Notes under the pieces: model-generated
Databases searched by the model: none
Seen by the model: the letters and a program-made list of their open reading frames with translations, nothing else
What the model was told of the DNA's origin: nothing
Assembly (NCBI RefSeq): GCF_964355755.1
Contig: NC_092678.1
Span: forward strand, 21,548,922-21,612,921
Direction: 5' to 3'
Length of the DNA stretch: 64,000 bases
Source: Antedon mediterranea
Taxonomy: Eukaryota > Echinodermata > Crinoidea > Comatulida > Antedonidae
Position numbers and translations under genes: made by a program
Shown here: positions 1,565 through 58,948 of the stretch, in pieces
Numbering within the stretch: the stretch's first letter is position 1
Layout of the letters: each line of letters begins with the position of its first letter

Positions 1565-1782
1565 GGGTAATCCATCCAGCTATTGCTGATCATTAGGGAC
1601 CCTCAGAGGTTCACAAGACAAACATGCACAAGATGCTCTACATAAACAAAGTCTTACTACAAGTCTTTGGGAGTGGAGTTTTAATTTAGTCCTTAGAAAA
1701 AATCCTGACATGTGACGGGACTTGAACCCAGGACCCTTGGAGTGGTAGCCAAGCATCATAACCACCAAGCCACAACCCTAAC
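1565..1782 (-). mobile_element. tRNA-derived SINE
   Basis: On the minus strand the head carries an A-box-like TGGCTTGGTGGTTATGATG and a B box GGTTCAAGTCC, spaced as in a tRNA gene. A non-tRNA body follows and ends in GGATGGATTACCCTCATTAA. A related 3' end (GATCCATCTGG with GAGGGT) appears at about 46,240. The head is degenerate as a tRNA, so it is read as a SINE, with pol III promoter boxes but no functional tRNA. Confidence 0.7.
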
Positions 1783-1817
1783 CCCTAACCCCTTACCCTG
1801 AACCCTAACCCCTAACC
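1774..1817. repeat. Degenerate telomere-like CCCTAA tract
   Basis: About 44 bp of ACCCTAACCCCTAACC-like words directly abutting the 5' end of the SINE. Short and imperfect. Confidence 0.6.
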
Positions 1818-7199: not shown

Positions 7200-7525
7200 T
7201 CTTTCAATAAGAAGTGCGTCATATTAAACGTTTCCGATTACGTCATTCTATAAATTCTATATTTAGACATTACAGAATATAACTTCAACCAATAGAAAGT
7301 CGATGCGAAAATCATATGATCAATTCACTAAAAAAACTTATCGAATGGCTAGGCTGCTATGTACACACATCATGCATGATTCATCAGTAAACCACACACG
7401 GCGCGAATCAAGTTAACAAGGGTAGCAGCTCTCTCTAGGCTCCAGGACACGATTTTGATTATCTGACAGCCTACATACAGTGGATCCCATACAGTTTGTC
7501 TTACAAAGGGAGACAAGAACATCAA
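7200..7525 (+). promoter_or_regulatory. Proximal promoter and 5' UTR of TFE/MITF gene
   Basis: Contains TTACGTCA (7238-7245, CRE/bZIP-like), TATAAATT (7249-7256), a CCAAT box (7289-7293) and an E-box CATATG (7313-7318), followed by GC-richer 5' UTR-like text. An in-frame TAG at 7436 precedes the first ATG at 7526. The transcription start is not determined. Confidence 0.4.
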
Positions 7526-7686
7526 ATGACCGAGTCAGGAGTTGACCTAGGATTTGACGAGAGTGACGACTTGTCTTTTGATGAAAGTCTGTTTTCTCTG
7601 TCAGCAGTATCAGACTTAAAACAATTGCAGTTGAAAGACGATTTTGATTTCTGCGAACTCAAAAGCAGATCAGTGGAAGAGGACAG
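7526..7686 (+). CDS. MITF: TFE/MITF coding exon 1
   Basis: First in-frame ATG (7526). Encodes [16 protein letters not shown] through [14 protein letters not shown] followed by ELKS matches the first exon of vertebrate MITF-A and TFE3. Donor GTAAGA at 7687. Ends with two bases of a split Ser codon that exon 2 completes. Confidence 0.85.
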
Positions 7687-19600: not shown

Positions 19601-22600
19601 AAACTTTCTTTTGAAACAAATAAAGGAATGTAATGTTTAACTCTAGCCAACCTCTATAAAGCTCTGTCTTCCTTTATTTGGTCGAACAAGTTTGATAGTG
19701 CAGACAGAGCTTTAAGAAACGCTTTCCTGGAGTACCTACAGTATGTGCTGCCCTTAATAGGGATTCTACCATTTGTCAATGATAGTACCCAGTATCCCAG
19801 TTTTTTTTCTTGGCAAGTCATCCATCTTTATGGATTAACAGCATTTTTTATCACTAACCCATGTTATTCTATTGTATTATCAACGATATTCCGACTGTCG
19901 GTTCACATTGGAACAAACTCGCTCGTACTGTGCACACAAATCCTTCTTAATTGCTGTTCACACATAGAGTACACATCCATGATATCTGTACTGAAATATC
20001 TCATCTTTTCAGCTATCAATGGAATGATATCATTGACTAAAGAAAAATGTATTAATATATTAATTTTTTTTTTATGTTTAGTCCTCTACGAAGAAACTCT
20101 TCTCTAAACGACCCTCAGATGACCTCTCGGGTTCTTTTCAAGCAGGAGTTGATGCGACAGCAAGTTGCTCAACAGGAGTTATTAGAACAGCAACAGAATG
20201 CCAACTTTGCCAGTACATCACTCAATCAGACCAGACCAATTGAGCTTCAGCAGCAGTTGGCAACTATACCAGAAGTTCCCAAAGATGTTCTTGTGGTAAG
20301 TATCTTACTTTGATTTTTTTTCCTGAGAAAATCATCTTCTGATGAGGCAGTCGGCTGTTAGATAGGCTAATCTGTTGTGAGATGAGTTAATCAGTTCTGA
20401 TAATATAGGCTAGTCTATTCTGAGATGGACTTGTCTGTTCTTAGATGGTCTTTAATCATTTTTGAGATGGGCTCTTTTTTCCTGAGATTCTGAGAGTCTA
20501 TTCTGTGATGGGCTAGTCTGTTCTAAAACGGGCAAGCCTGTTCATGAGATGTGGAAATCTTGTGGTGGACATGCTTTTTTTTTTAGATGTTCTAGTCTTT
20601 TTTGATTTGGACTAATCTTCTCCTAGATTAGCTAATTTAGGATCATTTTTTAAAATTCTTTTTTAGGATAAGGATGTTCCAAATTATTATAAATATTCCA
20701 AACTTCTACATTTTTAATAAGGAAATTTGAAATGAAAGATCGTTTGTATTGTTGATTTATTGTCAAATAGATTTACTGTACTACTACTCTCTTAGGGTGT
20801 TCTAAATTTGACCTGGGCCTCAAAGTGCATCTTCAGTTTGACCTGCTCTATATCTGACCCATAATCATATTATTTTTAAAGTATCTTTCTAAATATGTAA
20901 CCATTCCATGTTCTAAAATTAATAAACTGTAATCACATGCACTTCCATTCCCGCAGGAGGGATTAAAAGATTGAAAGGGACCTGGGACCTATTTTTGTTA
21001 GAACTTTAAAGAATTTGTGAATTTATAACTGTTTATTTACACTCCGATAAAAGCTGTATAATTTCCTGTAAATCTTTAAAAGCGCACTTAAGAATTATGA
21101 AGTTTTACGTCAGTCTTTTAAACTCAAGAGGATAATCAAAGAACTTTTTTATGATGATATATTGTCAAATGATTGATTTTTAAATGTTATATTATTAACT
21201 CTATTACTAAGTACTGTGAAAGTGTTTTTTAGAGGTTTTTTGAACAACCTGTTATAAAATGTGCATTTAGTTGCTATTGCTTGCAGTCAATTATTAATTT
21301 TAACCACCACACTTTAATCTGCAAAAGTACTTTTGATATGGTTTACAATGTACATTGATACCATAATACTCAGATATGAGCCCACCCTGGGCTATAAGCA
21401 TATTTTACTGTTTGTACAGACAGCTATGTACTTTAATACTTTGTCAGGCTTGGTACGCTTTGGTATGTGGCTTAAAATAATCAGCTAAATAGCCTAATAG
21501 GCAAGTTTAGCTAAATTGAAATTTAAGAAAAAGTGGATTGAGCTTTTTGTTTTTATAGTTATTTTTTCAACCTAAATGTAAACTTTTGTCAGATTTTCTT
21601 GAATAACATATTGTCTATTAGTATTATATACTGTTAAATTCTATGGATATGAATGAAATCCAAAATAATTAATTAATGACTGAATTATAATAATAATTAT
21701 GAATAATAATTAATAATGAAAAATAATTCTAGGATACCCAACAAAATGCTTGTTAGGCCTTCCCGCCTTAGTCATACAAATATGAAATGATAATAACATT
21801 AGGATATAACTTTACCGTAGGTAGAAAGCCTTTGGATGTCGTTTATGAGGATCAATTATTCCGTAGGGATATTAAGATATAAGACCTTTCTCTTAGTCAA
21901 ATTCCTTTATAATTTCCTCATTTTCCCGCCTAATTAATCATTGATACTCGCATAAATTAATTTCATAATATTTATTTATCTTCGCAATGAATTGCTTGAA
22001 GTATTAAGATTAAAAAATGAAATATAAAGCTAGAAAAGGATGTTCATAATTAGTATAATCAGTGGTAAATTGAATTTAATTTTAATATGTCAATGAACCA
22101 CAAAGTGTACTAGCCTATAATTATGCTTATTTAAGAGATAGGTAGACACAATACAAATCCTTCCCCCTCAAATTTTAAATTTATGAATTTGTAATGATTG
22201 ATGATGATAAGATTTATTTCGTGCCTAGCTTACATGGATAAACGGATATAGTCTATTACCCTAAAAAAGTAGAGAATTCATTAAACACCCCTGTTTATTA
22301 ATGGTACAGTCTGCAAACCACATCATACATTTAAATTTAGATGAAAAATCAATTTAATAAATCAAATTTAAAACGATCATAATATGGTTAAAGTATTTTC
22401 TTCTTTATGTATTATTATTTATTATGAAGTTATTTGAGGTTTTAAATTATGTAATAAATGTTTATTTTATTTTAATGTTTTATCAGTTTTTTTAGTGTTT
22501 CATCAGTTTTTTTAATGTTAAAATACAACTATGGAAATTACCTGAAACTTATAAAATCTGTATGAATTATCTGACTTCCTATTGGCTAATAGAAACACCA

Positions 22601-25600
22601 TAAAATATTGTAGTATGCCTAATGTACAATGATATGCAAGTATTGGATCGTACACTCAAGTTCATGGGCCAATTAGAATTCAGGAAAGTGACGTCGTCGT
22701 CACAGTGAACACACACAAGAGAGGGAAATAAGTTTGAGCTTAAAAAGCATTGCAAAGATGTGTGTAGCCGTCATTCTTGATTTTAGTAATGCTAGGCCGA
22801 CTTATATCACTTTCACTCATGCACTGTTGAGGGCTGGAACCTGAGCAACAGACAGTAGTATAGTAGAGATAAGCTTATTTATACTTGATTGAAACTTAAA
22901 ATGGTAGACTGCGCGTATTATAATCACGGTGGTCATAATTTTGGTGCGCCGTTTTACCACCAACAGCAGTACTATTACCAGCAGCAGGCCAATCAGAATC
23001 AGTATGGTTACTGTCAGCAGTATCGTCCGGTAAGCTTTGTTTATCCTAGCAACCATAACAAATCTTCATTTTAAATCTCTTTTCTCGATTTAAATATTCT
23101 TTATTAATTTCTACTGGATATACTATATGTAGTTTAAAGTTTTTAACTAAAACATTTTTGATATTTAATGTTACCATGACTTAATACCTTTGAACAATTC
23201 AACAAATTATTAAACGGCTTCTAGCCAATTTGAAACATTTTTAGCATTATTCGAAACATTACTATAGGGTCAGATTACTAATTTTGAACTTCGGAAAAGT
23301 TTAATGTTTATTTAAAAAAAAGTTATTTTACTATATCTTTATTTCATTCGTTAATAATTAAAGAAGAATATACTTCTACACCCCTTAGCAGAGAAAAATT
23401 TCATTTTAAAATTTTTTTTTTGCTAAGCAATTTTAGAAATATGTAGCAATAAGGTTGTTTTGTATAGCTTTTTGCTATGCTACACTGGCGAAATTATTCC
23501 CTGCTTAGGAGAATAGAATAGGGTCTACTGTACTGTAAACTTTTGCCTTCCACACTTCTCTGTTTTGGCCTACAATTGCTACCTCTGTCCATGTTCTACA
23601 CTAACTTATTTCTTTTTCCACAGTTCTTAAGTTTTATGTAAGAATCTTTAAAATCTATATTTCAAATATTCATTTCTGGATCATGTTCTATATTAACTTC
23701 TTTTCTTTTAGACAGTTTTTTTCAGTTTTATGTAAGAAGACTGGACATCTTTAAAATCTATAATTCAAATATTAAATTCTGAATCATTATTTGAAATATC
23801 AGTAAAGGACTTTGTGAGCTTATTATGGTATTAGTGGTTACCACTAGTTGGATCAATCGAGCAATCAATCCTTTTGGTTTCGTTGCTTCTCAACACTATA
23901 GTTCGTATTAATATTTCCTTTAAGATTAAAATGAAACTACAAAATATTTATTTTATACCGGCTAGTCAACATATTTATCAAACACAATCAAAAGTTGTTT
24001 TTTTTTAATTTTTATTTTTGCAGCCTTAAATTTTCAAAATTAATTTATTTTGGACAACATGTGTTATTTAAAATATTTAATATTTTTTAATTAGTTTATT
24101 TTTAAATATTCATGGCCTTAAATTAAAGTTGATTTTCTCAAAATGTGTGCAGTATATTCATTTGTTAACTATACTTTAACATTTTTATTTCCGTGTTACA
24201 TAATTGTTTGTTGATTTTCTAAAATAATTGTGAAATTACATTTCATTGTTTTTTGTGTAATGTATAAAGCCACAAACATTTAAAGTTCATAAAAACAATA
24301 ACAAGTTAAAATTGCTCAAATCTAAAATTATAAATGATGAAACATTTTAAGTTTTTATGTTTTAGGATATAAAATCTAGTCCTTACATGTAACAGGATTT
24401 TGATATTAAACTATTGTTATTGCTTACTTTCATTTTTCGTTATATTTTGCAGAATCAGGTGATTCAGGAGAAATTATTCTCCCTGATCATGTGATGAGTC
24501 CAAAATTGTTTTCTCTGATCAGGTGATCAGCCCAATACTGTATATATTCGTAATCTAATACATTTAGTTTAGGTTTTTATTTTTAGAGATTTCAGATCAA
24601 CCATGTATGTTTGTAAGATCTGGTGACGGGAATAATGTTCTGTAGTATTCACTGCTTATTTAGGTTCCAATTTTAAACCTAGTTACCAATTGCAAGCTTG
24701 GTGGTATAATGGCATGACTCCAAGTTAGGGATTTGAAGATTAGTGGTTCGAATCCCACTTGAATGTGCATATTTTTGGCTAACATTTTGTATCCACTGCA
24801 TACAATGATATGCAGTATCTTTAAATCACTACAATTTCGATTTTTATTTAAGACATTTTTTCTTAAAATGTAACCAAATATTTGTAACCAAAAATTATAG
24901 TTAGTATAAAATTCTTTAATAATAGTCATGATGGACTAGGTTATTTGATTTGTTGGCTCGTAATTTGTAACACAAGTGATGGTTGAAAGTTTAATATATT
25001 AAAACAAAGAAAACCAATGTATACGTTCAACCCATCACACTGGTTAACTTTTATAGTATGAACACCATTTTTATTGAGATTTAGTTTAATAATACTGGTT
25101 TCTTTGATTCGTTTATAAAGTGTTGTTTTGCTTGTACACATCTCTGATATAAAATTTTGTGGCCATGTTTATTGACAAGATTGAACCGAGTGGTAAAGAT
25201 TCCGTGTTTAGTATGTGATTTGATGGTTTTTTAGTCGTTTGATGAGATTGTGCTTTTACTGCACTTTTTGACAACTTATAGATATGTATTAGACGGCAGA
25301 CATGTGTTATAAACTTTCACAACTAAACTATATAAAAACCATATAAATGTGCAATATGGAGTCTTACCAAGATTGTACCATATTTTTATAGATAAATCAA
25401 GGTAGAAAGAGAATCTTGCTTAAACTATAAATAAATAACTCAAGAATGTACTTTAAAATAAAGTGGTAATGCAGTTCACTTAACAAAGGCTTATGGTACT
25501 CGGTATATGTGGAGACTCCATCTACCCTCTGCCTTGCAACCCCATCTCTTACTTACAGTAATCTCTTCCTTACTACCCCATTTCTCCTTTATCCTTCCAC

Positions 25601-28600
25601 CCTCTGTCTTGCTACCGCATCTCCCCTTCCCCACCCTTTTCTTTGCAAACCCATCTCTTAGTCGCTGCTTTACTACCCAATTTTCCTTTCCTCCCCACCT
25701 TCTGCCCTGCAACCCCATCTCCCCTCCTTTCCCCACCCTCACAGCAACATTTCCCCTCCCCTCCCCTTCTTATCCTCTGCCTTGCTATGGCATTTATCCC
25801 AAACTCCCTTTCCCACCAAACTCCCTTTCATACCCAACTCCCTTTTCCACCCTTTTTCTTACTACCCATCTTCCCTCCTCTCCAAACCCTCTGCCTTGCT
25901 AACTTCTTTCCTCACCTGCATCTTTTATTTTATTTCTTTAATTGGTTAGAATATGTGTTTGATACCAAAGTTATCACTTATTGTGGTATGAGCATATGCA
26001 GATAATTATACTTTTATTCCTTCATCATAGTGCCAAGTCATTCCAGTTAAAAAAATCCCTGTGGTTTTTGTTTATTTTGCTATATATTAAAAATACTACA
26101 ATTATAAAACAATGGCCACAAGCTAAAACTGTTTGTATTACAACGAAAAACTAGAAAATTGTATTTAAGATAAAAACAGGGCATTTGAAAATATACTATT
26201 AGTATTATTAAACGTAAAAATTATCAAAACTTGTAATGGTGAATGGAAATAAAGTCGATTGATCGATTGATTGATTGATTGATATTTATTGCTGTAAAAC
26301 ACTAGATACGATGTCCATACAAACATTCTAAAGTCAAACATGGTTGGTGCTGCACTTTTTACAACACAATCAAATAACAAATATTGTAACTATTATTGCA
26401 TTTTGATATAAAGTAGGTTTATGTCATCAATAAAAATGTTTTATTATTTAAATGAAATATGTTTGATGCATGTTGGACTTGGTTTGATAGTGTGCATTGT
26501 CTGTATAACCCATGAATGTAGCTAAGCAAGTTGAAGGTTTAAAAGTCCACGTGGCTGTTGAAAGGGTAGAAGTTTAGCATATGGATGGACGGAGGGAGAG
26601 AGGGAGTATTGATACTTATTTTAGAAATTGTTACAGTTTAATCTAATTCAAATAGGGAATTTAATAAAGTAGTGGTATTGGTTCAAACACTAAATATAAA
26701 TGATGATAATTGTGTGTTGGGATGCTCCCACTTGAGGGCAGGGTTCATGTAATGTACCATTATTTAATATAATGTATTGTTATATATTATTCGAGTTGTA
26801 GCTCTCTTCGTGGATAGAATGGCCAATGTTGGTTTATCTAGGTAAAGCTAGCACTTTATAGACTATCAACACCACTTGTGGTTTGTGTATCTAACTTTGT
26901 TTGAGGGTTAGGTTTAAGTAGCATAGACTAGTTCAGCTTCAGAAGAAAAAAAAAGATCGCAGTGTGGACTTTATGAGAAAAGTCCTGCTTTCCTCGAGAA
27001 AACTGCTTTACTATCATGATTCGTCCATTGGATAGAACTTTAAGCCGTTGGTCCTGTTTACACAAAAAAAAAAGTTCATGGTGTTGTAAACTGGTGTAAT
27101 GCTTAATTACAGATTGCATAGTTCAGTCCTGACATGACCCTTTCTCCTTTATGCTTTATAATTTTGGATCCAATAAACACTGCTACTAACTACATATGGT
27201 TATGTACTACGAACGCATACCATCTGTTGATACTGATTTAACAATAGCACTTAAATTCAACTGGTTAAGATTTATTCTAGATATGGCTCATTTTTTTTTA
27301 TTTACTGTTTATTGGGAATTTCGTATATAACTTGCCTGATTTCAACTTATTTAGTCCAGCCGTAGTATGTGTGAGAAGAGGATGATTGAGATTGAGAAAG
27401 ATGCTCATGATGTAGATGCTCATGATAAAGATGCTCATGATAAAGATGCTCATGATGAAGATGCTCATGATGAAATTGCTCATGATGAAATGTTCAGATG
27501 CTTGTGGACTGTACTATTTAGGGATGTTAAATTCTCTAATATTGCTCTTTTGAGGAGAACATAGTTAGTAGGATGTATTTTGTTTCAATTTTCCTGAAAT
27601 AATAATATACCAGTAATGGCATCTTTTTCATTGTTTTTTCCACCTATTAAATGTTTTTTTTGTTTTTTTGTTCAAATGTTTTCTATTTCTTCTATATGTT
27701 TGGTTTCAATAATACTTTACATGTAAAACATGATAAGTTTTGTCTTTCAAACGCGTTGACTCATCAATTATCCCCTGTCTTGCATTTCTCCGCTTCCCTT
27801 GGCATTGTCTCATAGAATGTGAAATCAAAGCTTTTCACAATCTAGTGTGCTGTTAGTAAAACACTGAAGTGTAGGCCTAATCTTCTGATTTTGTCAGCTT
27901 TCATATCCTGTTGGCTTAGTGCCCTCATTGGTCCTCCGTCATTTCCTTTTATTATCATTGTATTAACCTGATGGTCTACTTAGCCTATTAGTGCCTTTCC
28001 CCACCTGTCTTATTAGTGCCTTCCTCACCTGTCTATACCACAGTTCACCTGTTGAATTTGTAAAAATTAGGTACCCACACTATTTTAAATTCCACCTACC
28101 TGTAGAAATATCAAAACACACATTTCTTAAACATTTTAGGACACAAAAAAAGGAAGAAATAGGACTTTCAAACTTTACACATGCTTTGTAACATGTTACT
28201 GTTGTGATAGCTTCTGCATCTGATTTTATCTTTTAGCTTTACGTACAATTAACTTCCACTTATACGTTGTCGTTTCATGAACATTTGGTGATGTTTCAGT
28301 CTAACAATAATTGTCATTTTAAATCAAGAATTATTTCAAATGCGGGAAGGCTAGTGTTTCAGATTATGATATTTTTTTTTTAAAGAGACATAATCAATCA
28401 GAAAATTTCTAAAGAATTCAACTAATTTTCATCATAATAACAAGTAAAGCCTTCTTAATTATGCATTTGTAATGTAATTATTATTTTTGACAAGTATCAT
28501 AGATAGTTGATAGATCAGAGTAAACAACCAGATTAACTCATCAAAAACATTATTTGAAAATCACTCAACTGTGACAGTAAAAATCACTCAACTGCGACAG

Positions 28601-34600: not shown

Positions 34601-37600
34601 TATAATAAGATAATGATGAACATAATAATACCTACAGTTCATGATAAGTATAATCATAGGGTCTGACGATAGTGATTTTTTTTTGTCTGTGGATACGGTG
34701 GGTTCTATGCATAATGCTCTCCACTTGAGTTGTTTCTTTGGACATGGTAATCTTGTCTTATACCACCATGTATAGCAATTTAAAGTTTATTATTTATAAT
34801 GCTTTCCTCTCAATCTTTTCCTTCCTTTTCTCTCTCCTTTCCCTTCCTCTTCCTCTCTCCTTTCCCATCCTCTTGCTCCTCCTTGAGGGATAAGAAACAT
34901 TAATGAACACTATCCAAGGCAATATAACAACTGAAGCTGAGCTTTGGAGATCAAAGAGTTTATCTGTGGCTGCCACACGATCAGTTCCACACCCCTTAAC
35001 AGACACTGCACGCCGCAGAGAATAAGTAGTACTGGTGGTATTTTATTGCAGCCAGACATAAGGACTTTTACAAGTTCCTATCTTGGCAGGACAAGCTATG
35101 TCCTTCAGAAAAGCTATAGCTTTTTTGATATAAGAATCTCCTGCAATTTGGCTTTCATTCAGTAATTAATACAAATTTAAATAAGCTTGTCATAACCAGA
35201 TTGTGACCTAGGTTAAGTAGCATTTATTTTAATAATGACATTAAAAATTGGTGACACTATGTTGGTTTGACATGCTGTACATTTCTCATCTGCAGTGTTC
35301 CACACATTTTCTATGAAGTTCTATATGCATATTTTGGTAAATGATATGATTTTTAACTCGAACAAAGTGGTTTTAATTGTCTTTAACTTGAGTTGTGTTC
35401 AGACTTGTTTTGATTCTGAACCGATATTTAGGAAATGTTTGAATGTATATTCATGGGAATCGTTGACTTGGTTGAAAGGGAGGTGATGCCAAGTGTATTT
35501 AGGTTCAAAATATGTGAATGGGTAGGAAGGTTGCTTCCATAAATATGGGATGTATTTTGTAATAATTAATACTAGAATACTTTCGTTTCTGTGACATTGT
35601 GATTGATTACTCTATCGTAAAGTACGTTATTATTTACGTTTATGCTAATTTGTATTCACAAAGACAGGAACGACTTAATCTAACAGGAAGAAAAAATATC
35701 ATCGGAAAAGGTTTCTCCATTTGAATACAATACAATGACTACATTACTTATGCTTTTGTCCGTCGTCTTTCTTGCAGGTAAAAACAAAGCTACAGCATCC
35801 GACACGCTATCACGTACAAGAACGACAAAAGCAGCAAGTACACCAATACTTGAATGCGCAGTCATCACCAGGGTTTCTTCAACAGCTATCGCCCAATCGG
35901 AATGGTTCGCAATCGAGCATGCCGAACAGTCCGATGTCAGGCACTGATGTAAGTTGATTGTTTAACTTTTTTTTACAATAAACTAATAGAAAGTGATGGG
36001 AGTTTTGCATTTCTGATTTCCCTGCCTGAAATTCTTGGAACTTTCCCATTTGTAAAGTAAGACAGATGATCGACACATTTATTTATGTAAAAAAAGTCAC
36101 ATTAAAGTAGTTTGATATACAGTAAAGATCTGATTCCAATGAAGGACCATCAGATTCTTATCGGTTCGTTGTTTAATTTCATCTATGCTATACTGAGTAA
36201 TGACACAAAATAGACATTCAGCACTGTAAACACAATACCACCTGTCAAATTATGGCAACCTTTCCACGCTTATATTATAATGTATGTGAATATTTTAATA
36301 TGCTTTGTACATGGCATGTTAAAGTAAAGCAACTCGTCCAAAGTGACTAGTTCAAATCTAGTTAAATTTTACACTACAATCAGGAGTATCTCAGACTATT
36401 TACAGTACCTGTTGTTTTGTTTCGTACAAATCCAATGTCCAATACTATTAGAGATTGTTTATCAGTCGATATTTAATTGATTAAATCCTAAATTTCTTTC
36501 ATTTATGTGCCGGTAAGTCGTTTAGGATGTCTGCGTATGTTATTTTTGTCTGCAGTAGATCAAACAGATTAGCTTCCGCCGCAAGGGAAAAGATTTCAAG
36601 GGAAACAGGGGTTATGTGGGTGTGTGTCAGGAATTGGGGGAAACTGAAGGTGTTCAGTCTTAAATATAGATTTATTTAATTTTGTATTTAATAAGATGGT
36701 ATCTTTTCATAGGAAGTAATACAATTTATTAATATGGTATTTATTATTAATTATGTAATAATTTCACTTGTCATACTTTGATTTGTTTACATTTTATTGT
36801 CGGAAGTGCAAGATTTATTCACAAATCAATAACATTAACTTAATTTTCACGTCTAAAAGAAAAAAATATTTGAATCAGAGTGAAAATATTATACTGTGTG
36901 TGTTATGGAAACACCTAATCAATTAGAAACTATTGATCAAAACTGATTATTAACAATTAACTATATAGTACACTATACTTATTGAAGATGATAAATATAT
37001 TAATTTCCGATTTCTCTGTGTTGAAGGTCTTAACATAAAGCAGAGATTTTATTCTTATTAGGTCGCATGTGATCACAAAGAAATGTTAGCCCCCGCCTTC
37101 AGCCACCTGGGATTTCAACAATTTCCCCTCCGCACAACTGTCATCAAGATTGTTGCATTTGTTATTTTATTTTTAACCCTGCCTTATCAGTACGATCTCC
37201 AATTTAAATCCGTCAAAATCATCCTGTTAAAGACTTTCCGCGGTTTTCCTTCCTGGGTCAACGGAGAATTGGGTCCCTTTGGAAAATTTCACTGACATGC
37301 TGTTGGTATGACAACCGTAGTTTGAAATGTATATCGGGAAACCGGAAAATATCCAGACGAAACGGTTTATGTCAAAATGTTTAATTTATATTTTGTCATG
37401 TGTCAATTTTGAAACATTTTATACAAATGTACATCTGGGTTTTGTTGGATCTATATTAATATAATAGTTATCTTCTCATCCCATGAGTAAATTATATTTT
37501 CTAAAGAAAATTTGTATCGAAGAAAATACAGTTGTCTACCAAGTTAATTAGTGATAATGCTGTAGTACTTTGAATTCCGTCAGGAAATCTGTAGTTTACT

Positions 37601-46600: not shown

Positions 46601-49600
46601 TCGTAATTTTTTTTTTTTTAATGATTAAGATGATCGGTTTTATGTACATAATATTTTTAATGAGAGGTTTCATTTGTGTTCTATTATTATTCAAAAAGAT
46701 TACATGTGTTGTTTGATTGACGACTGGCTCCCTGTCGCCAGACAAGACAACTTTTATATTCAGATATTGTAGTACTATTGTAGTATCGGCAATTATAAAA
46801 AAAAGTTGACCTATTTTTATGGAAATTTATTGATATTATTTTCTGTATAAAAGAGCAGTTTATTCTGACAGTGACTTTGACTACTTCTGGCATAAGTTGG
46901 GATTCGACCCTAGTACCATGGGATTTGTAGGCACACATCATAACCTGCAAGCTATAAATCCACAATCCACTGTACTGTACATTTCTTCATAGTACAAATT
47001 CCATGATCTTCCCAAATATGGTAGTGATATGCCCAAATATGGTAGTGATATCCCCAAATGTAGTAGTAATATCCCCAAATATGGTAGTGATATCTCTAAA
47101 TATGGTAGTGATATGCCCAAATATGGTAGTGATATGCCCAAATATGGTAGTGATATCCCCAAATATGGTAGTGATATCCCCAAATATGGTAGTGATATCC
47201 CCAAATATGGTAGTGATATCAAAGAGTGTAGACAGAGCTAATAAAGCAACACTACATTAGTATGAGAGCATTGTGATAGCATACAGAGTGCTTCCTTATA
47301 TTGTTTCAACTAATTTGACCTCTTGGTTGTTTTCCTTCCTCTATTGTAGGTAGACATTGAGGAGCTTCTAAACTTGGAGACCAACAGCCTTGGTGACACG
47401 TTTAGCTTCTTGGAAGCAGAACCACTTTACACAAACACAGTGAGTACTTATCATGATTAATTGAATAATTAATAGTCAAGCTTTCCCGGATAAACAGCTT
47501 TCTCTCCCCGTATCTCCAAAAGAGACGAATACATTCAATTATCTTAATATAATAGGGTTTGAAGTTTCCAAATATTTCCGGATATAATACTAATACATAT
47601 TTTTGTATTATGCAGTTTATTATGTAGTTTTCCAAATATGGTCATTATATTCCCATAAATGGCTTATTAAGTGCAGTATTGGCTTATACCTGACTATACA
47701 GTATCCAATAATGTAAAACAAAATTAGTCATAATAATTTTGTATTATATGCCAAAAAAAGGTCATAATATTTAATACCATAAATAGGTTCATCCCAATGA
47801 TTGGCTTATACCAATTATGTAAACATAAATAACTATTAATCATCTTTTTTCCACGCTCAGTTGGTCTTTGCACCAATTTTCTAGGCCAGCCCGAAATAAG
47901 TTTTGCTTTCGTACTGTATCAGTTGGTGCCAGGGCTTTATGTCATTTGAGGCCTGAATGGTTGTAACATCTGAAGTGCTATGTTTACACTCTTCAATCGC
48001 CCTAAATATGTTATCAGTATAAGTTGATAATAAAACAATTCCATTATCTATGTTATGATGTTACTGCAGTATAATGCTTTTTGATATTCATTTCTGCAGT
48101 AATGCAGTTTTTATGACAAAATTATTATTTGAGGTTCTTTCTATTAAAAAAAAATCTTCTACACCCAGACCAGGATGCTAAAATCAATGTTTAAAGTAAA
48201 CTTGGTGATTTAAGAGATTTAGTGAGATTAAAGGATCAGTGGCAGAACATCTGGAAGGATAGTGGTTGGCTAATCCCATGCCATGACCTTATTCTAAAGC
48301 TAATACTCTTAATTCTCATTGGATAAATTTCCGTCAACGAATTTCCTAAACACATTTCATTCACTAAAATGTAGACTGAAATTCTTGTAGTAAAGACATA
48401 ACATATTTTATATATATTAAATAATATGACATAAATTGAAATCATCTACAGTAAATACAAAATAATTACTGTACTACAGTAATTCACACATTTTAATGCA
48501 AGTAAAGTCAGTGAAAGAAAATAAATTTTATAAATTGTTTTTATATACTATATAATATCAATACAAAATGAAACCTCAGAACAAGTTAGTGATATAATTG
48601 ATGTACAGTAACACACTGATATCTGCGCATTCATGCATCTTTGTAATATAATATAATGCTAGCTAACATAACAAATTGTATTTTATTCAGCCTTTCTGCA
48701 AACCCACCCTTGAATATTATAATCTAACATGTGTTATTATAATTCTGACTACATACTGTCCTAATCCAAAATCAACTACAAACCAAACATATTTTCCATA
48801 TTTTACCAGATGTCATCGCATTAAATAAACCATAATTATCTTCTTTTACCAGATGCCAGTATCAAACACATACCTCGAAGCACTCGGATCAAACTCTGCG
48901 TCAATGCCCGCAGCCATACCAAAGACGTCGTCTTCATGTCCGGCCGACCTGGATAAATTAAACGCAGAACCGATCGCCTTTACGGATGAACATTCACGAG
49001 TAGCATACATGAAGGAACGACAGAAGAAAGACAACCACAATATGAGTAAGTTACATTATTATTTTGATGGTTTAATTACTGCAGTAACTTCAGTATACTG
49101 GTTAACTACTTTTTAGGTTGTCCTATAATCCCAGTTTTCTCTTTCAAAAGTTTAGAAATTTATATATTGTATGACATCATACAGTTATATCACAGTGCTA
49201 TAAATATTATGATTAATAAATAAGTATTCAGCTATTAAATATAAAAAATATAATTGTCAAATCATCTTAAGTAAAGTATTTTTACCACTAGCGTATTTAC
49301 TAGTATTATTTTTAATTCTGTGTTATTAAAATTACCACTAAAGTACAAAGTTGATTTCACTCATAAGTTATCCTTTGTTGTTTTACCCACTAGCCTATTT
49401 ACCGCAAAATGTTTACATTTAGGTCAATATTTCTCGACATGAATTCTTGTGAAACTGTCCGATTTATTTATTAAGATTAATTTTATTACAAGCAAAATGG
49501 GGACAGACATCTTCATGTGATGAATACCCTAGTGGCCGTATTAAAGGTTGTTTACCCCCCAAGTGATCAATGTTGGGTAATGTTTATATGCCTGTTATTG

Positions 49601-52047
49601 AGTGTTGTTAATGTTGATCGTTACCACGACAATCTTGTCGGAAGGGTGTCTAACAAACCTGTTAATACATTCAAATTGAGTAGCACTTCTGACAAGAAAA
49701 GTGCCGTCTAAGTGTCGAAACCTGCCACAAACGTTCAGGCGGTGGCATGCGCCTCTTCAAGCAACTAGGGCGCGGAGTCCTACGGGACTTGCCATCGGGT
49801 GAACGGCGATCCGGATTAGCTTACAGCCTTCTGGCTAATGAATGAAGGTGTTATTACTCGTCAATTCTTTCCCTTGTAAACTCTTGTATCTTCCGTTACT
49901 CATTAACCGTGTCTAAATGGTATCTAATAAGTCCGGTTTTTTTATTAATTGAGTTACCCTTGCTTATTTAGGCCGACGCTTTCAATTAGTCGTTGGCGTG
50001 CTTGATGGAACCCGGTTGTCTTCTCTATTTAGTGTCTGTCATGACTCACTTGTTCCCCTTTCATGTAAACAAGGTTATGTTAAATGGGGTACAAAGACCA
50101 GACATTTAATAAATGTGCCCCTCCCAAAACTGAAAAGGCGAAGAAACTTAGTGTCACTCAACGCGATTGACCCCTACATTTCAAAGAAACCTGTGAACTT
50201 TCTACCTAATAAAATACAATAACTAAAGCTATCAAAAGTGTGATGTGGCCAAATATGGTAGTGATATGACATCATCATATCCATATTTGGGCACATCAAA
50301 TTTTTGGTCACATAAAGTAAATGGTAATACAGTGAAATCTGTAATTTATTTATATTTTTTATTTCAGTTGAAAGGCGACGACGATTTAATATCAATGATA
50401 GAATCAAGGAGTTAGGCACTCTAATACCGAAACATGCTGATCCGTAAGTTGAACATTTTTAATAAATATATGAATAGTTTAAAACGGTAACTTTTATATC
50501 TTGTTCATATTCCTAATCTTTGATACATTACACTTTAGTTTAACATTTTCCTGTAAATGTATTTTCTTTTAAAAACTTGACAAATTCATACATTAGTAGA
50601 ACACTACTATTAAGGGACCCTTGTGAAAACAAACAAGGCTGCAATATATGTTTTAACACTAAAGTCAACTTTTAATCAGAAAACGTTAAAAGGCACACTT
50701 TGTCTCGTTCCAAAGTTGTCCCCTTGATGGGTTGTGTTGTCTGTGTTTGTCTGTTCCACTCTCTTGCATCCAGAGAGTCAAGAAAAAATACCATTATGAA
50801 ATCAAATATATTTTTACAAATTTGATTTATTTTATTGCAGAGATCAAAGACAAAACAAAGGAACTATCTTGAGGTCGTCGGTAGATTACATAAAAAAATT
50901 ACAAAGAGATCAAGCAAAATACAAAGAAGCAGCTGAAAGACAGAAACAATTACAAGCAGTTAATAGGAGAATGATGTTGAGAATACAGGTACGACTGCAC
51001 CCCAAATACACGCGCACACACACCATTCCATGTTTATACCATTTTCTATAAGCACCCTGTTTAAAGTATGCGGTGCACCACGTACATATAGTTCTGAAAA
51101 GAACTGTTGAGTTTCTTGATGTTTCAATGCTTCAATTGCGCAATTCTGAGGATGATCAAAGTATATTGATCGAAACGTCGAGAAACTCAACAGTTCTTTT
51201 CAGAACTATATGTATGTGGTGTACCGCACACTTTATATCCAGATTTCGCCGTGCAAACCTTCAAACATTATATATCAACCTGATACTACTTTGTTCTACA
51301 CTTAAACTATAACAATTTTGCATATGCACTGTGTTGATATAAACGCACTTGTTATCAACATTTTCCTTAAGTATTCCATATGCACTAAATATAGTACTTC
51401 AGTAGAACCCCTCCACTGGGAAACTCCTATTATGTTTTAACACTACAATTAATCCAGTGGACATTCCTATTCAACACTTTGTAGGATGCAGTACCTTAAT
51501 ACTGTTTACACTTTCTGGGGTTTGCCTCTCTTATTTAAAATTGTTTTTTCACAAACACTGTTAATTGAAAAAAAAAGAGAAATAAATGTTCTGAAATAAA
51601 TATAATATTCAACACTTTGTAGGATTCAGTACCTTAATAGGGGTTTCTATTGTATTTTGTCTGTTACAAATTTCCCTAAGCACTGTGTTTCGATACTAAT
51701 ACGACTAAAATCACGTTCATTATTTTCAGGAGCTTGAAATGCGCTGCCAGCAACAGAGCATCCCAACTAAAGCGTTAAGCGATGACACAAAAACCGAGAA
51801 CATTGCGAATGATTTTCTACGACTTCAGGAGGATCCAATGATGGACTTGAAAATAAAAACCGAACCAAATGATATGGATTTATTAAGCAATATTTTACCA
51901 CCGCAGGAAATGAACGACTTTATGTCTTTCGATCTGAACGCTTCGTCGATGAATATCGAAATGGAACCTTCTCCCATAATCGCCGATCCATTGTTATCGG
52001 CGTCGAGTAGTCGTAGAAGTAGTTTAACGAGTATGGACGATCTGTAA
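7526..52047 (+). CDS. MITF: MITF/TFE family bHLH-leucine-zipper transcription factor
   Basis: join(7526..7686, 20082..20295, 35778..35948, 47350..47439, 48853..49045, 50368..50443, 50841..50988, 51730..52047): 1371 nt, 456 aa, all junctions GT-AG and in phase. A nuclear and lysosome-shuttling activator that binds E-box/CLEAR sites as a dimer. Order: acidic N-terminus (1-53) ending in a CELKS segment as in MITF-A/TFE3; Rag-binding type [15 protein letters not shown] (67-81); PNSPM (174-178, equivalent of TFEB S142/MITF S73); acidic activation segment [16 protein letters not shown] (238-243, equivalent of the TFEB S211 14-3-3 site); basic region [17 protein letters not shown] (266-282); HLH; zipper about 320-355; SUMO site IKTEP (K394); and C-terminal SSRRSSL. 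The second vertebrate SUMO site (before the basic region) is absent. Probably the sole MITF/TFE gene if the organism is an invertebrate. Confidence 0.95.
9786..9925. repeat. Irregular tandem repeat of ATTACATACTTTTATTAC
   Basis: About seven copies of a 15-25 bp unit around TACATACTTTT, giving a spurious open frame. Confidence 0.7.
10175..10450. repeat. Three-copy tandem repeat, 90-99 bp unit
   Basis: GTTTAAGGTGTGGGTGTTTA starts at 10175, 10265 and 10364. Each copy is followed by GGGCTAAAAGTACTAGGTGC-like text and a GGATGGACATA block. Confidence 0.85.
11308..11418. mobile_element. MITE family A, copy 1
   Basis: Left GTGTCTACACTATCAAACTA, right GTTTGATAGTGTAGACAGAG (inverted). The internal GATGTGTCCAAATATG and ACATCATCATGTCCATAT are shared with other copies in the window. 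Confidence 0.8.
12043..12668. mobile_element. 626-bp non-autonomous DNA transposon with TTAA flanks
   Basis: Perfect 15-bp terminal inverted repeats, AGACACCTTCCCTAC and GTAGGGAAGGTGTCT, bounded on both sides by TTAA (12039-12042 and 12669-12672). TTAA duplication is typical of piggyBac and Kolobok superfamilies. The interior is GC-richer than the intron (GCGGCCCGCTATAAATCCC, ACCGTCCACGAGAGG) and encodes no transposase. Family assignment beyond TTAA type is not possible by eye. Confidence 0.85.
15086..15325. mobile_element. MITE family A, copy 2 (with insertion)
   Basis: Starts AAAGCTCTGTCTACACTACC and ends in a decayed GTTTGATAG...GGAGCT. Internal GTGTGATGTGCTCAAATATA and the inverted TATTTAGGCACATCACAC are present. 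Longer than the other copies, with extra unrelated text in the middle. Confidence 0.75.
15429..15500. repeat. 24-bp minisatellite, three copies
   Basis: AATGCCCTGCAGTATGTAAT units begin at 15439, 15463 and 15487. Confidence 0.85.
16034..16126. mobile_element. MITE family B, copy 1 (CCCCTATTAAGG inverted repeat)
   Basis: TACAGTA then GGGAACCCCTATCAAGG at the left, CCTTAATAGGGGTTCCC then TACTGTA at the right: an almost complete palindrome around GGACCCAACAAAGGG. Relatives are at 38803 and 43845. Confidence 0.75.
17632..17847 (-). CDS. Unassigned 71-aa open frame in TFE intron 1
   Basis: Frame from ATG at 17845-17847 to TAA at 17632-17634, opposite to the host gene. It has mixed codon use and higher GC than the flanks and is not repetitive. 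The peptide is basic ([25 protein letters not shown]) with a hydrophobic stretch near the end ([12 protein letters not shown]). No family is recognised. It could be a chance frame inside a conserved non-coding block or part of an exon of a nested gene. Confidence 0.2.
   Translation of the reverse strand: MLSMTLKRKLGQDTFYYMLSSSTTSQISRRIRYLNAIDILSRSLMREIHGKDYAMFFILSMCLLYNRGKLT
18955..19200. promoter_or_regulatory. GC-richer unique block, candidate regulatory element
   Basis: About 245 bp of balanced composition with no ORF and no visible repeat copies, in otherwise very AT-rich intron. It ends in AGCTTGTTAATTACCATGGC, which has a homeodomain-type TTAATTA. Function is inferred only from contrast with the surroundings. 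Confidence 0.25.
19658..19713. mobile_element. MITE family A, copy 3 (56-bp deletion form)
   Basis: AAAGCTCTGTCTTCC at the left and TTTGATAGTGCAGACAGAGC at the right; the whole interior is lost. Lies about 370 bp before TFE exon 2. Confidence 0.75.
20082..20295 (+). CDS. MITF: TFE/MITF coding exon 2 (Rag-binding exon)
   Basis: Acceptor TTTTTATGTTTAG, donor GTAAGT. Encodes [13 protein letters not shown] then [15 protein letters not shown] and a Gln-rich helix. Matches the exon of MITF-A/TFEB/TFE3 that binds Rag GTPases: Ser-3 and Arg-4 of TFEB are conserved (S69, R70), and TFEB Gln-10 is Glu here. Ends in phase 0 after DVLV. Confidence 0.92.
20340..20640. repeat. Degenerate tandem repeat around CTGTTCTGAGATGGGCTAGT
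   Basis: About ten loose copies of a 25-35 bp unit (CTGTT, GAGATG, GGCTAGTC words) immediately downstream of TFE exon 2. Copies differ in length. Confidence 0.6.
22560..22900 (+). promoter_or_regulatory. Candidate internal promoter of the TFE gene
   Basis: Upstream of the candidate exon: inverted CCAAT (ATTGG at 22581), CCAAT (22669-22673), a CRE-like TGACGTCG (22689-22696) within the imperfect palindrome GTGACGTCGTCGTCAC, and short GC-richer text. Vertebrate MITF-M is driven by a CRE-containing promoter in the equivalent intron; the parallel is inference. Confidence 0.35.
22901..23029 (+). CDS. MITF: Candidate alternative first exon (MITF-M-like position)
   Basis: ATG with a strong context (AAAATGG), an in-frame TGA 15 nt upstream, 43 open codons and a good donor GTAAGC. 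It ends in phase 0, so it can join exon 3 (phase 0) in frame, replacing exons 1 and 2. The peptide is rich in Tyr, Gln, Asn and His ([26 protein letters not shown]). Vertebrate MITF-M likewise has a short first exon ending at this same junction, and it also contains YNH. The product would lack the Rag-binding segment. Alternatives are a chance ORF or the exon of a nested gene. No transcript evidence is available here. Confidence 0.5.
23397..23505. mobile_element. PIF/Harbinger-like MITE, copy 2
   Basis: AGCAGAGAAAAATTTC at the left, GAAATTATTCCCTGCT at the right, with TTA on each side. Internal TTGTATAGCTTTTTGCTATG is shared with the element at 6505. Confidence 0.75.
24693..24770 (+). mobile_element. 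tRNA-derived SINE head
   Basis: A box GCTTGGTGGTATAATGG and B box GGTTCGAATCCC at tRNA-like spacing. The acceptor and T stems do not pair, so it is not a working tRNA. Confidence 0.6.
25505..25915. repeat. Polypyrimidine tandem tract
   Basis: About 410 bp of almost pure C/T on the plus strand, built from a loose 40-50 bp unit with CCTCTGCCTTGCAACCCCAT words. It keeps long spurious frames open on both strands. Confidence 0.85.
27399..27488. repeat. 15-bp minisatellite GATGCTCATGATAAA
   Basis: Six units with small changes (GTA, AAA, GAA at the third position). The period is a multiple of three, so frames stay open on both strands. Confidence 0.9.
28920..29175. promoter_or_regulatory. GC-richer unique block, candidate regulatory element
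   Basis: Balanced composition, no ORF, no repeat copies seen. Contains repeated ATTCCGTTG/CATTCCGTTG words (GGAATGCATTCCGTTGAG and AGTCATTCCGTTGGG). Confidence 0.22.
29474..30000. repeat. Two-copy direct duplication, about 288-bp offset
   Basis: AATAACCACATTAAAATA starts at 29481 and 29769. Each copy continues with AAAGTGTC(C/A)CTTTAATAGAGGCC, then TTTCCCCTTGTT, and ends near AAAATAAAATCATAAAG. The copies have diverged by indels. Confidence 0.8.
30060..30380. promoter_or_regulatory. Unique block rich in homeodomain-type TAATTA sites
   Basis: About 320 bp with higher GC than the flanks, repeated TAATTA/TTAATTAG words and ACGCCCCCTC, without ORF or repeat copies. Candidate enhancer by composition only. 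Confidence 0.28.
32540..32930. promoter_or_regulatory. GC-richer unique block with a GTACAACT palindrome
   Basis: Contains GTACAACTGGAGTTGTAC (an exact inverted repeat with a short spacer, about 32631-32648), CAGCAGCTGGGGACGACC and TCATGTGAC. No coding potential. Confidence 0.25.
33540..33790 (+). mobile_element. LINE 3' remnant
   Basis: A 5'-truncated frame reads [20 protein letters not shown] before TGA at about 33635, the usual C-terminal TNRxxNSFxP...LLN signature of non-LTR retrotransposon ORF2. A non-coding tail with AATAAAA and a GAATGAATGAATGAA tract follows. The element is inactive. Confidence 0.65.
34797..34885. repeat. Polypyrimidine tract
   Basis: About 85 bp of CTTTCC, CTCTCTCC and CCTTCC words, almost all C/T on the plus strand. 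Confidence 0.8.
35778..35948 (+). CDS. MITF: TFE/MITF coding exon 3
   Basis: Acceptor CTTTCTTGCAG, donor GTAAGT. 57 codons, phase 0 on both sides. [20 protein letters not shown] corresponds to the family's conserved segment (VQTHLENPTKYHIQQ in vertebrate MITF). PNSPM near the end carries the ERK/mTOR-type serine. Confidence 0.93.
37075..37300. promoter_or_regulatory. GC-richer unique block, candidate regulatory element
   Basis: About 225 bp with CCCCCGCCTTCAGCCACCTG and CCGCGGTTTTCC words in an AT-rich intron. A 70-codon frame is present but has no splice signals or recognisable family. Confidence 0.22.
38803..38900. mobile_element. MITE family B, copy 2
   Basis: Begins ATACAGACTTTAGAACC and ends GGATATACAGT. 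Internal GGGACACTCC and TTAATCGGGGACACTC are shared with copies 1 and 3. Confidence 0.5.
40031..40188. mobile_element. 158-bp near-perfect hairpin element
   Basis: Two arms of about 70 bp around GAGGCAAAGCCGA. AATGGTACAAATAATGGCAC and GTGAATGATGAAAGGTTATA on the left return inverted on the right. The outer ends AATAATGAATG also pair. Best read as a foldback MITE. Confidence 0.85.
40395..40620. repeat. 35-bp minisatellite, cluster 1
   Basis: About six copies of TTTAGCCTAATCTAGGGGG plus TTCAATTATACTCAAA, with small length changes. Confidence 0.85.
40972..41235. repeat. 35-bp minisatellite, cluster 2
   Basis: Same unit as cluster 1, exact 35-bp spacing (41009, 41044, 41079), about seven copies. 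Two sub-variants alternate (GCATAACCTAGGTGG and GCCTAATCTAGGGGG). Separated from cluster 1 by about 350 bp of unrelated sequence. Confidence 0.88.
41646..41782. mobile_element. MITE family A, copy 4
   Basis: CTCTGTTTACACTATCAAAC at the left and GTTTGATAGTGTAGACAGAG at the right, with internal TTGCCTAAATATG and ACATCATCATGTC. One of the most intact copies. Confidence 0.85.
43429..43530. repeat. 102-bp duplicated segment, copy 1
   Basis: Identical by eye to 48005-48106 over its full length; starts AATATGTTATCAGTATAAG and ends CTGCAGTAATGCA. Confidence 0.9.
43845..44067. mobile_element. MITE family B, copy 3, with internal 57-bp tandem units
   Basis: Ends TTACAGTATAAC and GTTATATATTACTGTA are inverted. 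Inside, CCTATTAAGGGGCCAC units repeat at exact 57-bp spacing (43881, 43938, 43995), so an element grew by tandem duplication. A 19-aa periodic frame on the minus strand is an artefact. Confidence 0.8.
45298..45346. repeat. 13-bp minisatellite TGTTATACAACAG
   Basis: Just over three exact copies followed by a partial one. Confidence 0.9.
45446..45672. repeat. 14-bp minisatellite ACATGTCACCCTAG
   Basis: Imperfect at the left (ACATGCGACCCTAA...), becoming exact 14-bp units from about 45,590 (ACATGCTACCCTAG, ACATGTCACCCTAG). Confidence 0.88.
46228..46290 (-). mobile_element. SINE 3'-end fragment
   Basis: ATGAGGGTGATCCATCTGGC matches the 3' end of the SINE at 1565. The body is missing. Confidence 0.5.
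46880..46955 (-). mobile_element. tRNA-derived SINE head
   Basis: The minus strand carries GGGTCGAATCCC (B box) and an upstream A-box-like GCAGGTTATGATGTG. Possibly the head belonging to the fragment near 46,240 with an insertion between. Confidence 0.5.
47013..47240. repeat. 21-bp minisatellite grown from MITE family A
   Basis: About ten copies of CCCAAATATGGTAGTGATAT(C/G), the internal sequence of family A elements, followed by the family's right end AGTGTAGACAGAGCT. The 21-bp period keeps three frames open. It ends about 110 bp before TFE exon 4. Confidence 0.88.
47350..47439 (+). CDS. MITF: TFE/MITF coding exon 4 (activation segment)
   Basis: Acceptor CTCTATTGTAG, donor GTGAGT; exactly 30 codons. 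[15 protein letters not shown] corresponds to the DDVIDDIISLES activation helix of vertebrate MITF. Confidence 0.9.
47440..48852. other. TFE intron 4 (1.4 kb)
   Basis: AT-rich. Holds copy 2 of the 102-bp duplication (48005-48106); otherwise nothing recognised. Confidence 0.7.
48005..48106. repeat. 102-bp duplicated segment, copy 2
   Basis: Same sequence as 43429-43530, in the same orientation. The two copies flank exon 4. Confidence 0.9.
48853..49045 (+). CDS. MITF: TFE/MITF coding exon 5 (14-3-3 site and basic region)
   Basis: Acceptor TTCTTTTACCAG, donor GTAAGT. Starts MPVSN, includes TSSSCPADL (the mTORC1/14-3-3 serine context) and ends in the DNA-binding [11 protein letters not shown]. 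The last base begins the Ile codon of IERRRR. Confidence 0.94.
49530..50180. promoter_or_regulatory. 650-bp GC-richer unique block in TFE intron 5
   Basis: The largest island of balanced composition in the introns (GGCGGTGGCATGCGCCTC, AGGGCGCGGAGTCC, GTGAACGGCGATCCGG). No repeat copies. A 74-codon frame at 49998-50222 has no recognisable family. Candidate conserved enhancer. Confidence 0.3.
50223..50320. mobile_element. MITE family A, copy 6 (decayed)
   Basis: AAAGCTATCAAAAGTGTGAT at the left; internal GGCCAAATATGGTAGTGATA and ATATTTGGGCACATCAAAT; the right terminus is eroded. Confidence 0.7.
50368..50443 (+). CDS. MITF: TFE/MITF coding exon 6 (basic region to helix 1)
   Basis: Acceptor TTTATTTCAG, donor GTAAGT; 76 nt. 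Encodes [20 protein letters not shown], essentially identical to vertebrate MITF/TFE. Confidence 0.96.
50841..50988 (+). CDS. MITF: TFE/MITF coding exon 7 (helix 2 and zipper)
   Basis: Acceptor TTTTATTGCAG, donor GTACGA. Encodes [20 protein letters not shown] and the start of the zipper ([15 protein letters not shown]). The register break that limits this family to its own dimers appears preserved. Confidence 0.95.
51063..51235. mobile_element. Inverted-repeat element with hammerhead-like core, TFE intron 7
   Basis: Left arm 51063-51127 and right arm 51162-51235 are about 90% complementary (AGTTCTGAAAAGAACTGTTG and its inverse). Between and into the right arm lie CTGAGGA (51146-51152), a 6-bp hairpin GATCAA/TTGATC, then GAAAC and GTC (51172-51179). 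Confidence 0.7.
51730..52047 (+). CDS. MITF: TFE/MITF coding exon 8 (last)
   Basis: Acceptor TATTTTCAG; stop TAA 52045-52047. Begins ELEMRCQQQ (end of zipper), then [11 protein letters not shown] with the SUMO motif, and ends [14 protein letters not shown] plus an acidic tail, as in vertebrate MITF and TFEB. Confidence 0.95.
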   Translation, partial: ELEMRCQQQSIPTKALSDDTKTENIANDFLRLQEDPMMDLKIKTEPNDMDLLSNILPPQEMNDFMSFDLNASSMNIEMEPSPIIADPLLSASSSRRSSLTSMDDL

Positions 52048-57122: not shown

Positions 57123-58710
<1,588 letters not shown>

Positions 58711-58948
58711 TTTTGTATTTGATTTTTAACCTTTGACATTTGAATGTAATTTTCTTCAAATTACTTAACAATAGTGAATTATTTCTTCTTATTATAATAT
58801 AATTAAATAATATAATTATTTTAAATTCATAAATATTATTTAAACGCGTTTGTTTTCTATAATATATTTTAAAATACTGTAATAAAATCTTTTGTTTTTG
58901 GGTCGTTCGATCCCGGCCCCGAAAAGGGTAGGTCAAACAAGATGCAAT
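58711..58948. promoter_or_regulatory. Bidirectional KAT5/ST7 promoter region
   Basis: Only 238 bp separate the two divergent start codons. The centre is AT-rich with an AAACGCGTTT palindrome (58842-58851). The ST7 side turns GC-rich (CGATCCCGGCCCCG). No TATA box at a clear position. Confidence 0.6.

What the first reader, a model, noticed from the sequence alone, without database searches (positions are those of the whole stretch)
22560..23029. MITF-M-like alternative first exon and internal promoter in an invertebrate TFE gene
Seen: a 43-codon ATG exon with strong start context, upstream in-frame stop, a good GTAAGC donor and phase 0, preceded by CCAAT boxes and a CRE-like TGACGTCG. It can splice only in phase 0, and TFE exon 3 is phase 0 at VKTKLQHP, the same junction where vertebrate exon 1M joins. 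Known: vertebrate MITF-M starts from an internal, CRE-driven promoter, with a short first exon containing YNH. Inferred: the promoter switch may predate vertebrates, or arose twice.
Basis: partly seen in the sequence, partly recalled or inferred. Interest (0 to 1): 0.85.

Follow-up and report, generated by a model that had tools for sequence, protein, structure and literature searches.

The report
Alternative first exon in echinoderm TFE
The MITF/TFE gene of what is probably a crinoid echinoderm carries what looks like a second starting exon inside an intron, which would make a shorter protein lacking the nutrient-sensing anchor, much as our pigment-cell version of MITF does, but no transcript or second species was available to prove it.

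Summary
The 43-codon ATG exon (22901-23029, here EM) has an upstream in-frame stop, good start context and a strong phase-0 donor. I rebuilt the MITF/TFE gene (eight exons, 7526-52047, 456 aa). EM lies between the Rag-binding exon (20082-20295, equivalent of vertebrate 1B1b) and the VKTKLQHP exon (35778-35948, equivalent of MITF exon 2), the slot of vertebrate exon 1M. Its synonymous-codon score is the highest of 16 ORF-to-donor rows in the window; 0 of 78 simulated phase-0 ORFs reached it, though one non-exon intron stretch comes near. The signal ends at the donor. Upstream lies a CCAAT/CRE-half-site cluster; 2 of 3000 local shuffles had one (thresholds set afterwards). Joined to exon 3, EM gives a 374-aa isoform without the Rag-binding segment. 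Best reading: an alternative first exon with its own promoter, making an mTORC1/Rag-blind TFE isoform. That it works like MITF-M is plausible; descent from exon 1M is not shown: the shared 'YNH' is weak (P 0.01-0.06) and the CRE imperfect. The Hox cluster suggests a crinoid. No transcript or relative could be examined.

The parts
22551..22790 (+). putative internal promoter: CCAAT boxes at 22581(-), 22642(-), 22669(+); TGACGTCG at 22689 inside GTGACGTCGTCGTCAC (22688-22703); TATAT at 22803 and Inr-like TCACTTT at 22807 lie just downstream
   Evidence: only place in the window with at least 2 CRE half-sites and 2 CCAAT within 150 nt; 2 of 3000 local shuffles have such a stretch
22808..22900 (+). 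presumed 5' leader (inferred); free of upstream ATGs only if transcription starts after 22819
   Evidence: ATG listing
22901..23029 (+). EM: 43-codon alternative first coding exon, Tyr/Gln-rich, phase-0 donor GTAAGC
7526..7686 (+). E1, first coding exon of the long isoform (ends phase 2)
   Evidence: gene model
20082..20295 (+). E2, equivalent of MITF exon 1B1b with [15 protein letters not shown] (Rag-binding segment), ends phase 0
   Evidence: PF15951 match starts at residue 70 of the long isoform
35778..35948 (+). E3, equivalent of MITF exon 2 ([14 protein letters not shown]..., PNSPM), phase 0 at both ends; presumed splice partner of EM
47350..47439 (+). E4, acidic activation-type segment [10 protein letters not shown], phase 0
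48853..49045 (+). E5, SSSCPADL site and start of basic region
50368..50443 (+). E6, basic region and helix 1
50841..50988 (+). E7, helix 2 and zipper
51730..52047 (+). E8, C-terminal exon with stop

Best explanation
The region is an internal promoter and alternative coding first exon of the MITF/TFE gene of an echinoderm. Transcripts starting at about 22810-22890 would carry exon EM, splice from 23029 to 35778, and encode a 374-aa protein. Its first 43 residues are a Tyr/Gln-rich, probably disordered segment in place of the 125 residues made by E1 and E2. The isoform keeps the PNSPM and SSSCPADL sites, the bHLH and the zipper, but lacks the Rag-binding segment; it should not be held at lysosomes for mTORC1 and should be mostly nuclear, as MITF-M is. 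Shown: exon anatomy, coding-like codon use, donor, phase, position, loss of the Rag segment if spliced. Inferred: promoter activity, the splice, disorder, localisation, and what switches the promoter.
For: Complete in-frame gene model; residues 75-410 of the long isoform align to TFEB in the PDB, with the E2/E3 junction [15 protein letters not shown] against TFEB VPGEVLK|VQSYLENP (that N-terminal stretch is weak on its own, 20 bits). EM has the highest synonymous score of 16 rows; with kinase-only training 0 of 20,000 resamplings with intron codon frequencies reach it and a GC-matched null gives P 0.0008; without Gln codons 2.5e-5 and 0.015. Total score is 11.0 over the exon and -5.3 over the 14 open codons after the donor. 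Donor as strong as the gene's own. No AG between 22500 and 23000 rivals the true acceptors (best 5.7 against 9.4-18.2, matrix made from those seven), so it reads as a first exon. One copy found in the genome, by protein and by DNA search. Promoter-like cluster. Isoform M matches PF15951 from position 61 on only, the long form from position 1. In vertebrates exon 1M splices directly to exon 2 and absence of 1B1b explains nuclear MITF-M (PMC7470386 passages; PMC11222436 passages).
Against: No RNA evidence and no second species. EM's total coding log-odds (11.0) is only sixth of the 16 rows, and an antisense frame over it scores higher (16.7, synonymous 5.9); that frame has no ATG and no AG...GTRAG pair. 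An intron stretch that is not a credible exon (29041-29238, acceptor score -1.2) reaches a synonymous score of 9.7, so such scores occur without exons. The sequence is low-complexity and 9 of 10 Gln codons are CAG. Whole-window shuffles give at least one CRE+CCAAT cluster in 62 of 200. At the second Gln of the Rag motif (Q62 of MITF-A; position matched from recalled sequence) this gene has Glu, so Rag binding of the long form is itself inferred.
Confidence: 0.66

Rival explanations
1. Chance: an open ATG frame of ordinary length ending at a good GT, with no product.
For: Phase-0 ORFs of this length arise about 0.3 times per 38 kb of simulated intron, 1.6 at local composition; a non-exon intron stretch (29041-29238) has nearly the same synonymous score; no transcript data; low-complexity peptide.
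Against: 0 of 78 simulated phase-0 ORFs reached its synonymous score; the signal stops at the donor. Of the six + strand rows of 35 or more codons, three contain known exons of this gene, one is EM, and the other two (57618-57727, 58949-59099, within or next to the KAT5 gene on the other strand) score 1.3 and -2.4.
Confidence: 0.17
2. First exon of another transcript nested in the intron (small gene or lncRNA), or an unspliced 57-codon ORF ending at 23074.
For: The frame stays open for 14 codons after the donor. A 65-codon terminal-type candidate at 29041-29238 is in a phase EM could join, with synonymous score 9.7, total 5.8, and AATAAA or ATTAAA within 2 nt after it.
Against: The 14 codons score -5.3. 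The 29041 candidate has no usable acceptor (score -1.2; its frame only opens there because the AG is part of a stop) and its peptide is found nowhere else in the genome. The next downstream gene, KAT5, is on the minus strand.
Confidence: 0.1
3. Cassette or poison exon of the long transcript, spliced in from E2 through an upstream acceptor and ending translation.
For: The AG before 22787 scores 5.7, above the 95th percentile (4.7) of 3177 AGs in the window.
Against: It is below the 99th percentile (8.3) and below the true acceptors, 9.4-18.2; it would not explain an ATG with coding bias starting after an in-frame stop.
Confidence: 0.06

Closest known systems
Vertebrate MITF-M (exon 1M and its promoter)
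   Same: Own short first exon spliced directly to MITF exon 2, bypassing exon 1B1b and its Rag/cytoplasmic-retention segment (PMC7470386 passages).
   Different: 43 codons against 11 (recalled); Tyr/Gln-rich; peptide similarity limited to YNH; CRE imperfect; the PAX and LEF patterns tried were not found; an echinoderm, not a vertebrate.
Other MITF and TFEB alternative first exons
   Same: Alternative first exons under separate promoters or start sites (PMC9363479 passages).
   Different: In most MITF isoforms the first exon joins exon 1B1b and keeps the Rag segment (PMC7470386 passages); EM lies downstream of the 1B1b equivalent and ends in phase 0, while that exon needs phase 2.
TFE3 gene fusions of renal cancer (recalled, no call)
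   Same: N-terminal Rag segment replaced, in some fusions by a low-complexity segment.
   Different: Somatic rearrangements, not a germline alternative exon.

Membership tests
MiT/TFE gene (MITF/TFEB/TFE3/TFEC) | PF15951 N-terminus and bHLH | tested here: met
   PF15951 E 3.7e-22, HLH E 1e-16; TFEB and MITF are the best PDB chains
MiT/TFE gene (MITF/TFEB/TFE3/TFEC) | SRxxLxxxLM-like Rag-binding segment in the long form (motif recalled) | tested here: met
   [10 protein letters not shown] at residue 69; Glu at the second Gln; binding itself untested
MITF-M-type isoform | separate first exon between 1B1b and exon 2 (physical order in vertebrates recalled) | tested here: met
   E2 20082-20295, EM 22901-23029, E3 35778-35948
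MITF-M-type isoform | exon joins exon 2 directly, in frame | tested here: inconclusive
   phase-0 donor and acceptor fit, but 4 of 7 acceptors fit; no RNA
MITF-M-type isoform | lacks the Rag/retention segment | tested here: met
   in the joined isoform PF15951 matches from position 61 only; conditional on the splice
MITF-M-type isoform | promoter bound by CREB, SOX10, PAX3, LEF1 (PMC4964517 passage) | tested here: inconclusive
   CRE-like 7 of 8 and one SOX-like site; the PAX and LEF patterns tried gave nothing
MITF-M-type isoform | exon 1M peptide homology | tested here: inconclusive
   P 0.010 start-anchored score, 0.050 any offset, 0.062 YNH anywhere, 0.23 any shared 3-mer; human peptide recalled
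MITF-M-type isoform | pigment-cell expression from its own promoter | not testable with these tools
   no expression data

The most novel reading that the evidence does not exclude
The 1B1b-skipping internal promoter of MITF is inherited from the deuterostome ancestor: echinoderm EM and vertebrate 1M descend from one exon starting M-[VL]-[DE]-x-x-x-Y-N-H, later lengthened by Tyr/Gln-rich sequence here, so the switch between a nutrient-sensing and a constitutively nuclear TFE protein predates melanocytes and the vertebrate gene duplications.
Probability: 0.1. Interest if true: 0.82.

Novelty: new variant of a known kind. Interest (0 to 1): 0.5.

Why it matters
MITF-M is the isoform that escapes cytoplasmic retention in melanocytes. 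If an invertebrate TFE gene makes an equivalent from an internal promoter in the same slot, the separation of a nutrient-gated and an ungated TFE protein is older than, or independent of, vertebrate pigment cells. One RNA experiment plus a look at relatives would decide between no exon, common descent, and convergence on the same gene position.

Tried and rejected
A regular-expression search for the acidic exon missed it; a coding-plus-splice scan then found E4. A first gene model had E6 and E7 one or two bases off and ran into stops; it was corrected. A COX1 search for a mitochondrial contig found nothing, so the phylum was inferred from the Hox cluster. Antisense coding over EM was considered because of its higher total log-odds and dropped. 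A (CAG)n microsatellite as cause of the codon bias was considered: the tandem-repeat finder reports none there, and the signal survives without Gln codons. Origin of EM as a repeat or duplicate was dropped. The 29041-29238 candidate was examined on rechecking and kept as a caution; for it I lowered the best reading from 0.70 to 0.66 and raised chance from 0.13 to 0.17 and a nested gene from 0.09 to 0.10, against my draft. Papers: I saw no report of an M-like first exon outside vertebrates in the listings (25 of 678 papers shown; 20 of 37; 15 of 42; 15 of 18; fish-oriented terms; 12 of 1,696, mostly unrelated), all in the held open-licence library; this is weak evidence of novelty.

Full report
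What was checked. CCAAT boxes and TGACGTCG are present at 22581-22696.

The gene. I built a complete model on the + strand: E1 7526-7686, E2 20082-20295, E3 35778-35948, E4 47350-47439, E5 48853-49045, E6 50368-50443, E7 50841-50988, E8 51730-52047. It gives one open 456-aa protein. Pfam calls PF15951 (E 3.7e-22) and HLH (E 1e-16); TFEB and MITF are the top PDB chains. PF15951 matched one place in the 354-Mb genome, exon E3; that search works exon by exon and did not list E2, so a diverged second gene is not excluded. E2 carries [15 protein letters not shown], the counterpart of the 1B1b Rag-binding segment, and E3 begins at the junction that aligns with TFEB VPGEVLK|VQSYLENP. EM thus lies between the 1B1b and exon-2 equivalents. 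In vertebrates most first exons splice to 1B1b, whereas exon 1M splices directly to exon 2 (PMC7470386, passages seen). That 1M lies physically between 1B1b and 2 is recalled.

Is EM a real coding exon? I trained codon frequencies on 25 kinase-domain stretches of this genome (the 25 best of 140 matches, all open) and, also on E1, E2 and E3, against introns of the window. Of 16 ATG-to-GTRAG rows of 35 or more codons on both strands (some share a start), EM has the highest synonymous score (10.9) and the sixth total log-odds (11.0). Of the six + strand rows, three contain known exons of this gene, two lie within or beside the KAT5 gene of the other strand, and one is EM. Simulated introns give 13 phase-0 ORFs of this length in 40 runs (65 in 40 runs at local composition), none with this synonymous score. 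With kinases alone as training, 0 of 20,000 resamplings of its peptide with intron codon frequencies reach it, and a GC-matched null gives P 0.0008. Dropping Gln codons leaves 2.5e-5 and 0.015. The 14 codons after the donor score -5.3. The donor scores 9.8, the seven others of the gene 7.6-10.3 on the matrix made from them.

Results against it. An antisense frame scores 16.7 in total log-odds, but has no ATG and no splice-site pair. A scan of the three introns for internal or terminal exons left two terminal-type candidates, 29041-29238 (total 5.8, synonymous 9.7) and 36559-36663 (11.5, 4.8); the scan re-found 5 of 7 true exons and is blind to non-GTRAG donors and to donors overlapping an in-frame stop. 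Their acceptors score -1.2 and 4.2 against 9.4-18.2 for true ones, so neither is a credible exon; 19 such terminal candidates arose in 40 simulated intron sets, none as good as 29041. A real non-exon can therefore score near EM although simulations say it should not, and the codon evidence for EM is weaker than its P values suggest. EM's advantage is that it also has an ATG in good context and a strong donor at which the signal stops.

Does it belong to this gene? It is on the gene's strand, inside its intron, and its phase fits E3, but it also fits E4, E5 and E8, so phase is weak evidence. No upstream AG between 22500 and 23000 rivals the true acceptors (5.7 at best), so it reads as a first exon. 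EM and its surroundings were found once in the genome.

Promoter. One TGACGTCR per window is expected by chance (1.0). The inverted pair GTGACG-N4-CGTCAC is unique (0.00 expected), but that pattern was written after seeing it. Windows covering 22551-22790 are the only 150-nt stretches with at least 2 CRE half-sites and 2 CCAAT. 2 of 3000 local shuffles contain such a stretch, and 62 of 200 whole-window shuffles have at least one somewhere. The region upstream of E1 also has CRE half-sites and a CCAAT box, so this may simply be the promoter style of this gene. A start after 22819 avoids all upstream ATGs.

Mechanism. Joined to E3, EM makes 374 residues without the first 60 positions of PF15951. 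[quoted passage not shown] The inference is an mTORC1/Rag-blind isoform. EM adds a segment that is 44% Tyr plus Gln (19 of 43), likely disordered, perhaps an activation or condensate-forming segment (speculation; a parallel to TFE3 fusions is recalled).

Homology with exon 1M. EM and the human peptide (recalled; not found in the paper library) share YNH at residues 7-9 from the Met. Shuffles give P 0.010 for the start-anchored score, 0.050 for any offset, 0.062 for YNH anywhere and 0.23 for sharing any 3-mer. This is a hint, not a demonstration.

Organism. On C2, 12 of the 13 homeobox regions fetched from 7.79-8.21 Mb show a readable Hox-type homeodomain, in order, with the two most posterior genes face to face (gene names assigned by me from recalled homeodomains). 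A feather star, Anneissia japonica, has such a face-to-face pair, there more than 360 kb from the other ten (PMC7351957 section 7), here 47-68 kb. Its GC is 33.2% (PMC7351957 passages), similar to this window. I infer a crinoid; this is not proven. Sea urchin Mitf is reported in pigment cells and skeletogenic precursors (PMC9363479 passages); those passages mention no M-like isoform.

Verdict. Coding-like alternative first exon, probably of this gene (0.66). Works like MITF-M: plausible. Is exon 1M by descent: unproven (0.1).

Noticed in passing
G000 C2:7827797-8206132 (loci L029-L040): Ordered 12-gene Hox cluster with the two most posterior genes face to face, as described for a feather star but here 47-68 kb from the rest.
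   Followed up: partly
window 57126-58725 (-): KAT5/Tip60-like gene: Tudor-knot, MYST zinc finger and MOZ_SAS domains in two long ORFs, tail to tail with the TFE gene.
   Followed up: partly
window 2961-4055 (-): MFS transporter exon, monocarboxylate-transporter-like by eye; Pfam MFS_1.
   Followed up: partly
window 29041-29238 (+): 65-codon open stretch in the EM intron with coding-like synonymous codon use (9.7) but no usable acceptor; its peptide is found once in the genome.
   Followed up: partly
window 47004-47220, 40451-40620, 40976-41230: Tandem arrays of 21-nt and 35-nt units inside introns; the 21-nt array ends 130 nt before exon E4.
   Followed up: no
window 7217-7293: The region upstream of E1 also has two CRE half-sites and a CCAAT box, so both putative promoters share this style.
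   Followed up: partly
window 1776-1817: Short telomere-like (CCCTAAC)n stretch in the chromosome interior.
   Followed up: no
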